This document shows, one piece after another, positions 60,579 to 61,585 of a stretch of 64,000 bases of DNA. A program made the translations under genes and the position numbers. Within the stretch, counting starts at the first letter, position 1; each line of letters starts with the position of its first letter. Below the pieces are notes generated by a model. It was given only the letters and a program-made list of their open reading frames with translations. It was not told the DNA's origin and searched no databases. The stretch is from Trichocoleus desertorum ATA4-8-CV12 (lineage in GTDB: Bacteria > Cyanobacteriota > Cyanobacteriia > FACHB-46), in NCBI GenBank assembly GCA_019358975.1, contig JAHHIL010000005.1:62001-126000 (forward strand), written 5' to 3'.

Positions 60579-60622
60579 CAACGTATCTCTTAGCCAAGCA
60601 CAACGTATCTCTTAGCCAAGCA
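60579..60622. repeat. Two perfect tandem copies of a 22-base unit
   Basis: The unit starts CAACGTATCTCT and ends AGCCAAGCA. Copies are 60579-60600 and 60601-60622. They lie 17 bases upstream of the DUF6883 gene start and could be part of its regulatory region. Confidence 0.8.
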
Positions 60623-60639
60623 CAAGGATAAAACTGATA

Positions 60640-61320
60640 ATGCCTTTGGAGATACACAACTATATTTTGAGAGGGAAACGCCTAGTACAAATCGAAACTC
60701 AGCCTAATCATATTGATGGCGTATTAGATGCAATTCAGAATGTACGAAGAAGTTCCAATTTAGATTGGAAAGACATCTATTCAGCCCATTATGAGTATGC
60801 AGAGGACAGCACAATTACTTTCTACGAAGGTGAGAGTGCAGAAGCAGGTAATCCAGGTGTTTGGACTTACGTGGTATGCGACTGTGCTGAAGGCAACGAA
60901 GAAGTTGTACGCAATGCCAGCATCAATGCCCTAGCGACTTTATCAAAGGTTCAACAAGGGCTTGAAGAGCAGAGGATTAGTGCAGGAGGGTTACTTCCAT
61001 TCGCTGAGAATGCCATAGTCGATATTCGAAAGCTTCGTGACTATTGTCTTAGCCCAAGTCATGATGAAGGTAAGCACAAATCTAGGCTATTTTCATCAAT
61101 TTTGGGTATGACTGCTAAAGATGCTGAAGATTTGCGTCAAATTCTTCTCGAAGTCATCAAAAGCCAAGAGGCTCGACTAGGACGACATGATGAGTTTGGG
61201 CAACGCTACACTGTAGATTTCCCGCTTCAATGGCAAGATAGAAGTGCAATTGTCCGGAGCGGTTGGATCATCGAACAAAATTCTAAGATTCCTAGATTAA
61301 CGACCTGCTATCCCTTGTAG
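60640..61320 (+). CDS. DUF6883 domain protein with unknown N-terminal domain
   Basis: 226 residues. The C-terminal 95 residues match the DUF6883 pattern: IRKLRDYCLSPSHDEGKHKSRLFSSILGM in parts near 129-155, DAEDLRQILLEVIKSQEARLGRHDEFGQRYTVDFPL in parts, ending SAIVRSGWIIEQNSKIPRLTTCY. Its conserved His, Lys and Arg look like a catalytic set. DUF6883 occurs as an effector-like domain beside DUF4926. The N-terminal 115 residues (ETQPNHIDGVLDAIQNVRRSSN, VWTYVVCDCAEGNEEVVRNA) are unfamiliar. The adjacent DUF4926 gene (20 bases away) suggests a toxin-antitoxin or immunity pair, which is inference. Confidence 0.65.
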   Translation: MPLEIHNYILRGKRLVQIETQPNHIDGVLDAIQNVRRSSNLDWKDIYSAHYEYAEDSTITFYEGESAEAGNPGVWTYVVCDCAEGNEEVVRNASINALATLSKVQQGLEEQRISAGGLLPFAENAIVDIRKLRDYCLSPSHDEGKHKSRLFSSILGMTAKDAEDLRQILLEVIKSQEARLGRHDEFGQRYTVDFPLQWQDRSAIVRSGWIIEQNSKIPRLTTCYPL

Positions 61321-61339
61321 CGTCTGAAGGTGATACGAA

Positions 61340-61585
61340 ATGACGACTAATACTTTAATTAAGCTTCTTGATGTGGTGGCACTGACAGTTGATCTTCCTC
61401 AGTACAATCTTCGACGCGGGCAGGTTGGCACGGTTGTTGAGGTCTTGGCTAGCGGAGCAGCGTTTGAAATAGAGTTCGGTAATCGTGATGGTCGCACTTA
61501 TGAGTCTTTAGGTTTGCGTCCAGAGCAAATTATGGTTCTGCATTTCGAGCCAGTGTTTCCAGAACCAGCAGTTGAATGGTTGTAG
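61340..61585 (+). CDS. DUF4926 family small protein
   Basis: 81 residues. The DUF4926 pattern is KLLDVVALTVDLPQYNLRRGQVGTVVEVL in parts near 8-38, FEIEFGNRDGRTYESLGLRPEQIMVLH near 46-72. It is a compact beta-barrel-like domain, small and slightly acidic. AAGGTGA lies about 7 bases before the ATG. Its position 19 bases behind the DUF6883 gene suggests an antitoxin or immunity protein in a two-gene unit. Confidence 0.75.
   Translation: MTTNTLIKLLDVVALTVDLPQYNLRRGQVGTVVEVLASGAAFEIEFGNRDGRTYESLGLRPEQIMVLHFEPVFPEPAVEWL

What the first reader, a model, noticed from the sequence alone, without database searches (positions are those of the whole stretch)
60640..61585. DUF6883/DUF4926 gene pair as a toxin-antitoxin or immunity-like unit
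Seen: two short genes 19 bases apart, an effector-like domain with many conserved charged residues and a small partner, preceded by two exact 22-base tandem repeats. Known: DUF4926 genes occur beside small effector-like genes. Inferred: a two-gene poison/protection unit. The N-terminal 115 residues of the first protein are unfamiliar and could decide its target.
Basis: partly seen in the sequence, partly recalled or inferred. Interest (0 to 1): 0.6.

Follow-up and report, generated by a model that had tools for sequence, protein, structure and literature searches.

The report
RNase toxin with its protector gene
Two neighbouring cyanobacterial genes of unknown function look like a poison that cuts RNA and the small protein that blocks it, a unit also found on the tips of phage and bacterial weapons, and here the poison is attached to an unrelated ordinary protein.

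Summary
The two genes, the 19-base gap and the exact 22-base tandem repeat are real. DUF6883 and DUF4926 go together: 79 of 80 DUF6883 loci from named genomes have a DUF4926-like gene downstream, and 20 of 20 apparently unpaired loci had one when a held-out profile was used. DUF6883 is also the tip of two phage MuF capsid proteins and an eCIS-type toxin. Its predicted fold matches CDI tRNase toxins best (CdiA-CT Kp342, Z 11.2, rmsd 2.4 A over 100 residues). The active-site Lys and Tyr are conserved in 131 of 131 domains and the Thr/Ser in 128. I read DUF6883 as a colicin D/CdiA-like BECR ribonuclease, probably a tRNase, and DUF4926 as its SH3-like antitoxin. Toxicity and RNA cutting are untested. 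Nothing shows that the N-terminal 105 residues choose a target: they are a small cyanobacterial protein that elsewhere stands alone or is fused to a Doc antitoxin-like tail. The held open-access library had no functional paper on either family. New member of a known kind.

The parts
60579..60622 (+). two exact 22-base tandem repeats upstream of ORF1; private to this locus
60640..61320 (+). ORF1, 226 aa, fusion of a cyanobacterial small-protein domain with the DUF6883 toxin domain
   Evidence: homologous fusions L139, L165, L186
60640..60954 (+). N-terminal domain, residues 1-105; family of about 110-aa cyanobacterial proteins of unknown function
   Evidence: no Pfam or PDB match above chance
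60991..61317 (+). DUF6883 domain (residues 118-226), predicted BECR-fold ribonuclease
   Evidence: Pfam; pLDDT about 95-98; structure matches
61030..61032 (+). codon of Lys131, inferred active-site residue
   Evidence: 131 of 131 domains; mapped to K157 of 6cp9 and K204 of 6cp8 from the alignment end points; site residues from PMC9086364
61042..61044 (+). codon of Tyr135, inferred active-site residue
   Evidence: 131 of 131 domains; same Lys+4 spacing as K204/Y208 of CdiA-CT EC3006 (PMC9086364)
61294..61305 (+). codons of Arg219 to Thr222; Arg219 and Thr222 are inferred active-site residues
   Evidence: position 222 Thr 104 + Ser 24 of 131, position 219 Arg 80 + Lys 38 of 131; mapped to R252/T255 of 6cp9 and T330 of 6cp8
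61340..61585 (+). ORF2, 81 aa, DUF4926, inferred antitoxin/immunity protein with an SH3-like small barrel
   Evidence: fold from a homologous pair

Best explanation
A two-gene toxin-antitoxin unit. [quoted passage not shown] It probably stops growth by cutting tRNA. The second protein, DUF4926, is a small SH3-like barrel that probably binds over the active site and keeps the enzyme off. In this genome the toxin is carried as the tail of an unrelated small cyanobacterial protein. Shown by computation here: pairing, domain architectures, predicted fold, conserved residues, decay pattern, purifying selection. Inferred: RNA cleavage, tRNA as target, neutralisation by DUF4926, any regulatory role of the N-terminal domain.
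For: Pairing: 98 of 150 listed DUF6883 hits have a DUF4926 hit downstream on the same strand within 400 nt. Of the other 52, 20 were fetched, and a DUF4926 profile trained without those loci found exactly one ORF in each of the 20, next to DUF6883 (18 separate downstream genes, 1 fused in the same ORF, 1 fused to the upstream HsdR-like ORF; 238 ORFs tested, 0 hits in shuffled ORFs). 79 of 80 DUF6883-fetched genome loci are paired; the miss, L203, ends about 120 bases after the gene. The pair also occurs outside cyanobacteria: Chloroflexota and Planctomycetota, Actinomycetota, Gammaproteobacteria, Deinococcota and Bacillota. Toxin-tip architectures: Phage_Mu_F + DUF6883 in L247 and L254, eCIS_core + DUF6883 followed by DUF4926 in L119; BFVD matches are phage minor capsid proteins, E 3.7e-10 and 3.3e-9. 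Fold: 6cp9_G Z 11.2, rmsd 2.4, 100 aligned; 6vek Z 9.0; 6cp8 Z 8.6; BrnT 6.6; RelE 5.8; the top 17 listed rows are all CDI or toxin-antitoxin entries. Conserved residues: compared with the sites in PMC9086364 and PMC6851490. Decay: 15 of 93 pairs have a broken DUF6883, none has a stop in DUF4926 (hand count; length-weighted p 0.002). dN/dS 0.06-0.19 for the N-terminal, toxin and partner parts where computable.
Against: No experiment. Foldseek alone gave no PDB match under E 0.001, and sequence profiles found no BECR structure in the PDB. The exact residue pairing with 6cp9/6cp8 is read from alignment end points, not from a residue-by-residue list. Docking of the two domains in the read-through model is not confident (pTM 0.57). 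The small gene after the MuF toxin of L254 has no DUF4926 profile match under E 1, and those after L247-L249 match only weakly (E 8e-5 to 2e-4, 9 loci searched). 32 of the 52 unpaired rows were not examined. Antitoxin-side autoregulation, usual in type II modules, has no support: no DNA-binding domain was recognised in ORF2. DUF4926 also occurs without DUF6883.
Confidence: 0.82

Rival explanations
1. A delivered effector and its immunity protein: ORF1 is exported or injected into competitors, with the N-terminal domain as a delivery part.
For: DUF6883 is a tip of MuF and eCIS-type toxins and follows a 190-residue toxin-like stem in Rahnella L255.
Against: No trafficking domain in ORF1; its N-terminal family also occurs as a plain 110-aa protein and before a Doc toxin; most DUF6883 genes in the listed loci are stand-alone genes of about 110 aa.
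Confidence: 0.07
2. A domesticated, non-toxic RNA-binding or RNA-processing pair: the fold is kept but the unit has a housekeeping role, and the fusion makes the toxin domain a functional tail of a resident protein.
For: Fusion of the same N-terminal family to DUF6883 is kept in four lineages with dN/dS about 0.1.
Against: All inferred catalytic residues are present in ORF1, DUF4926 is kept beside it, and the DUF6883 family is patchy (75 of 145 genomes) and often decays.
Confidence: 0.08
3. Reversed roles: DUF4926 is the toxin and DUF6883 the antitoxin.
For: DUF4926 also occurs without DUF6883, near other toxin-antitoxin-like genes.
Against: DUF6883, not DUF4926, is the tip of polymorphic toxins and has a ribonuclease fold; in broken pairs DUF6883 is the broken one.
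Confidence: 0.02

Closest known systems
CdiA-CT/CdiI of Klebsiella pneumoniae 342 and E. coli 3006 (PDB 6cp9, 6cp8/6vek)
   Same: Closest predicted fold (Z 11.2 and 8.6-9.0); Lys-Tyr-Thr(-Arg) site; toxin followed by a small partner gene; both are tRNases for tRNA-Ile(GAU) (passages of PMC9086364 and PMC6851490).
   Different: Sequence identity only 12-16%; no CdiB or CdiA stem here; DUF4926 is SH3-like, whereas one CdiI is almost all beta and the other all alpha-helical; target of DUF6883 unknown.
Colicin D tRNase
   Same: BECR fold; the Lys-Tyr-Thr residues of CdiA-CT Kp342 superimpose on its site (PMC6851490, passages).
   Different: Plasmid-borne bacteriocin with its own receptor and immunity parts (recalled); not compared directly here.
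RelE/HigB/BrnT type II toxins
   Same: Small cytoplasmic BECR toxins in two-gene units; structural matches Z 3.7-6.8.
   Different: Weaker structural match; their antitoxins usually bind DNA (recalled), and DUF4926 has no recognised DNA-binding domain.
MuF polymorphic toxins of temperate phages (PMC5576092, passages read)
   Same: L247 and L254 carry DUF6883 as the C-terminal tip of a MuF protein with a small gene behind it.
   Different: The window protein has no MuF domain and lies among ordinary genes.
Doc modules fused to the same N-terminal family
   Same: Same N-terminal family, with another toxin-antitoxin module attached at the same end.
   Different: There the fused part is antitoxin-like and the separate gene is a Fic/Doc toxin.

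Membership tests
DUF6883 (PF21814) | profile match over the curated cut-off | tested here: met
   94.5 bits against a cut-off of 27
DUF4926 (PF16277) | profile match over the curated cut-off | tested here: met
   92.3 bits against 29.1
BECR-fold RNase toxins | N-terminal helices followed by a four-stranded sheet, matching solved BECR toxins | tested here: met
   predicted model, pLDDT about 95-98 in the domain; 6cp9 Z 11.2 over 100 residues, then 6vek, 6cp8, BrnT, RelE; a prediction, not a solved structure
BECR-fold RNase toxins, colicin D/CdiA-CT Kp342 type | Lys-Tyr-Thr/Ser active site | tested here: met
   131/131, 131/131 and 128/131; mapping by alignment end points to sites listed in PMC9086364
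BECR-fold RNase toxins | ribonuclease activity | not testable with these tools
   needs an enzyme assay
Type II-like toxin-antitoxin module | small, co-directional two-gene unit with a conserved partner, patchy and spread across phyla | tested here: met
Type II-like toxin-antitoxin module | toxin inhibits growth and partner neutralises it | not testable with these tools
   needs expression tests
Type II-like toxin-antitoxin module | antitoxin binds the toxin directly | tested here: inconclusive
   read-through model of a homologous pair: both domains well predicted, docking not confident, pTM 0.57
Type II-like toxin-antitoxin module | antitoxin with a DNA-binding domain for autoregulation | tested here: inconclusive
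   only DUF4926 found in ORF2; SH3-like matches
Polymorphic (delivered) toxin | N-terminal trafficking or structural delivery domain | tested here: not met
   ORF1 residues 1-115 match no such domain; met in relatives L247, L254, L119
Named Ntox families in Pfam | profile match | tested here: not met
   26 of 26 DUF6883 rows match DUF6883, none matches an Ntox model at E up to 0.1
Known anti-phage defence protein (PADLOC) | profile match | tested here: inconclusive
   only a weak hit, PDC-S05, E 0.011, residues 5-61 of ORF1

The most novel reading that the evidence does not exclude
The N-terminal cyanobacterial protein is a platform whose C-terminal end has been taken over independently by unrelated toxin-antitoxin modules: the DUF6883 RNase toxin in the window genome, FACHB-471, a UBA999-type genome and Nostoc FACHB-130 (and, as a decayed relic, G097), and a Doc antitoxin-like tail in six other genomes. 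The fused protein would then act as a sensor or anchor that ties toxin release to the state of the host protein, and the toxin module may be exchanged on a conserved scaffold much as tips are exchanged on polymorphic toxins.
Probability: 0.2. Interest if true: 0.7.

Novelty: new member of a known kind. Interest (0 to 1): 0.5.

Why it matters
Two families of unknown function, present in about half of the 145 cyanobacterial genomes sampled (75 and 81), get a concrete and testable job: a colicin D/CdiA-like ribonuclease with named catalytic residues, and its antitoxin. The same toxin domain serves as a two-gene chromosomal unit, as a phage-capsid toxin tip and as an eCIS-type toxin tip, so one assay would inform several conflict systems. 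The host-protein fusion raises a testable question about how toxin-antitoxin modules become tied to resident genes.

Tried and rejected
PDB by sequence: no meaningful match for ORF1 or ORF2, none of the right fold for profiles A1 and A2 (best A2 hits were a plant kinase and FeoB, E 0.008-0.02), none for the N-terminal profile A8 under E 0.36.

The weak RhuM match of the N-terminal part (E 0.24 and 0.055; 1 of 12 family members) and the PADLOC PDC-S05 match (E 0.011) were not used.

Single origin of the fusions: the N-terminal parts of the four fusions form one clade (100/100), while their DUF6883 domains do not; but the direct test did not reject one clade (p-AU 0.081, 39 of the 74 rows), so module exchange is left open. 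No N-terminal relic was found beside the close unfused relatives.

Docking of toxin and partner: read-through model, not confident.

Phages collection: no match for either DUF6883 query. Viral scan with the second subfamily: nothing. PHROGs: nothing. The 22-base repeat as a regulatory element: not conserved.

Literature: 0 papers name DUF6883 and one names DUF4926 in passing; searches were of the held open-access library only, by these names and the Pfam accessions PF21814 and PF16277, so a description under another name is possible. A broader search found nothing. PMC3482391 and PMC5512222 were read by passages only; the passages shown do not name this family.

Full report
WHAT IS THERE. ORF1 (60640-61320, 226 aa) and ORF2 (61340-61585, 81 aa) lie on the + strand 19 bases apart. 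ORF1 ends in a DUF6883 domain and ORF2 is a DUF4926 protein. Two exact 22-base repeats lie at 60579-60622; they are unique in the window and absent from all fetched relatives at the time. The window lies in a 6.06 Mb genome; its named relatives with the same fusion are cyanobacteria.

THE PAIR IS A UNIT. In the same genome all three DUF6883 stretches are followed by DUF4926; two of the three DUF6883 genes are damaged (the C2 copy has a usable start only for its last 70 residues, the C24 copy is a 49-position fragment) while their DUF4926 partners are intact. A fourth DUF4926, on C13, has no DUF6883 match. Across 145 genomes DUF6883 occurs in 75 and DUF4926 in 81, together in 71. By Pfam alone, 98 of the 150 listed DUF6883 rows have a DUF4926 row just downstream (further rows of both tables were not printed). 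Of the 52 others, 20 were fetched. A DUF4926 profile trained only on 45 ORFs from other loci found one ORF in each of the 20 loci, always the neighbour of DUF6883: 18 as separate downstream genes, one fused to DUF6883 itself (L072), one fused to an HsdR-like upstream ORF (L085); shuffled ORFs gave none. Every one of 21 diverse DUF4926-like ORFs also matches PF16277 itself at E up to 0.1. Among 80 DUF6883 loci fetched from named genomes, 79 are paired. Over all loci L139-L249, 86 of 89 full-length DUF6883 ORFs are paired, but the viral loci L219-L245 were fetched with DUF4926 and so are not an unbiased test. The pair is also seen in Chloroflexota, Planctomycetota, Actinomycetota, Gammaproteobacteria, Deinococcota and Bacillota.

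WHICH GENE IS THE POISON. Three independent lines point to DUF6883. First, architecture: in L247 (an IMG/VR phage contig, behind a portal-like gene) and L254 (a phage gene cluster on an Anoxybacillus plasmid record) DUF6883 is the C-terminal tip of a Phage_Mu_F minor capsid protein, and in L119 of a protein with an eCIS core domain whose next gene is DUF4926 by Pfam. In Rahnella L255 it ends a 301-residue toxin-like stem followed by an annotated DUF4926 gene. MuF toxins with a small immunity gene behind them are described in PMC5576092 (passages). The partner after the MuF toxins is a weak DUF4926 match in L247-L249 and no match in L254. Second, decay: a hand count over searches gives 15 of 93 pairs with DUF6883 interrupted, split or reduced to a fragment away from contig ends, and no pair with a stop inside DUF4926 (one, in G122, has a shortened DUF4926 beside a broken DUF6883). 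Weighting by length, 0 of 15 falling on DUF4926 has p 0.002. In 8 of 8 such loci that I opened, the DUF4926 ORF is present. Apparent orphans such as L086 and L089 keep only the tail of DUF6883 upstream. Third, fold.

FOLD AND ACTIVE SITE. The DUF6883 domain of the window protein is predicted with pLDDT about 95-98 as three helices followed by four strands. VIA-align matches are 6cp9_G (CdiA-CT of Klebsiella 342; Z 11.2, rmsd 2.4, 100 aligned, 16% identity), 6vek_A (Z 9.0) and 6cp8_A (Z 8.6) of CdiA-CT E. coli 3006, then BrnT, RelE, HigB and MqsR entries; the first 17 rows are all CDI or toxin-antitoxin entries. A second model, of a homologous pair, gives the same top match. Foldseek by itself ranks 6vek first but at E 0.006. 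Against predicted viral proteins the best matches are two phage minor capsid proteins, E 3.7e-10 and 3.3e-9. The review PMC9086364 lists the sites of these toxins as K157, Y160, H170, R252, T255 and K204, Y208, H256, R260, T330 and both as acting on uncharged tRNA-Ile(GAU) (passages); PMC6851490 says the Lys-Tyr-Thr residues superimpose on the colicin D site (passages). The alignment end points put window K131 on K157 and on K204, T222 on T255 and on T330, and R219 on R252; Y135 has the K+4 spacing of Y208. Over 131 distinct full-length DUF6883 domains, position 131 is Lys in 131, 135 Tyr in 131, 222 Thr or Ser in 128, 219 Arg or Lys in 118. The residue mapping is inference from end points. 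I conclude that DUF6883 is a colicin D-type BECR ribonuclease and, less surely (about even odds), a tRNase.

THE PARTNER. DUF4926 is predicted as a small beta barrel; its matches are SH3-like/KOW barrels (the N-terminal stretch of Hpy99I Z 8.9, NusG Z 8.3, Ssl0352 Z 8.3, NdhS Z 8.0). The fold came from a chain made by reading through the stop between two in-frame genes of a homologous pair (L140). The placement of the two domains is not confident (pTM 0.57), so the blocking mode is inferred from CdiI proteins, which generally bind over the active site.

THE N-TERMINAL PART. Residues 1-105 belong to a family found in 28 of 388 sampled genomes of the class. It stands alone as a protein of about 110 aa in 15 opened loci (in six genomes of one genus, g17, it overlaps a hexapeptide-repeat acetyltransferase-like gene, a name given by eye), is fused to DUF6883 in the window genome, G065 and G225, and is fused to an antitoxin-like tail directly before a Fic/Doc toxin in G195, G144, G162, G029, G358 and G005; the toxin is PF02661 and DOC_P1. 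G182 has a shorter tail of that kind and no toxin seen; three of the opened loci gave no ORF by my filter (L283, L284, L287) and L285 is a divergent longer protein. Among the 80 named loci the same DUF6883 fusion is in L139, L165 and L186 (L139 matches the G065 locus, and L165 and G225 carry the same protein). In G097 only the first 34 residues, a DUF6883 tail and DUF4926 remain. N-terminal, toxin and partner parts are under purifying selection: dN/dS 0.07-0.19, 0.08-0.13 and 0.06-0.13 where dS could be computed (many dS values are above 1, so the ratios are rough). The N-terminal parts of the fusions form one clade; their toxin domains do not in the best tree, but a single clade is not rejected (p-AU 0.081). 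Other, unrelated N-terminal parts are fused to DUF6883 in L023, L128, L190, L212 and L213. So nothing suggests that the N-terminal part chooses the toxin's target; a tie between host protein and toxin is possible.

KNOWN OR NEW. Toxin-immunity pairs with BECR RNases are a well-known kind (PMC3482391, PMC9086364, passages). In the held open-access library no paper names DUF6883, and one names DUF4926 in a list. No Ntox model of Pfam matches any of 26 diverse DUF6883 rows. I file it as a new member of a known kind; the fusion to a resident protein family that is also fused to a Doc antitoxin-like tail is the unusual part.

Noticed in passing
L036:1845-2438, L100:738-1430 (-), L126:1447-2022: DUF4926 with a long C-terminal tail holding a repeated 'INQYGxGDNIxGDK'-type motif, in operons behind large Roc/COR-like NTPase genes that carry a similar motif (family names recalled, not from a call).
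   Followed up: no
L015:1836-3317 (-), same place as L085: DUF4926 fused to the C-terminus of a type I restriction HsdR-like protein, directly before a DUF6883 gene.
   Followed up: partly
L091, L094, L099, L104: DUF4926 genes without DUF6883 lie next to what look like RelBE, Phd-Txe, PIN/VapC-type and HicAB genes (read by eye from translations).
   Followed up: no
L220:1512-3210: IMG/VR contig with an XRE/HigA-like gene plus DUF4926, then a complete DUF6883-DUF4926 pair: two units in tandem.
   Followed up: no
L072:1274-1876: Natural single-chain fusion of DUF6883 and a DUF4926-like domain (201 aa) in G114.
   Followed up: partly
L013, L016, L021, L259: DUF6883-DUF4926 pairs beside HsdM-like, Cas5-like, DUF262-like and helicase/VapBC genes; defence-island-like settings (partly by eye).
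   Followed up: no
DUF4926 rows of alignment A2 (for example L013:1836-2159): Some DUF4926 proteins have a C-terminal tail; 2 of 21 rows match DUF2281 (E 0.01), a tail of a kind I recall from antitoxin-like proteins.
   Followed up: no
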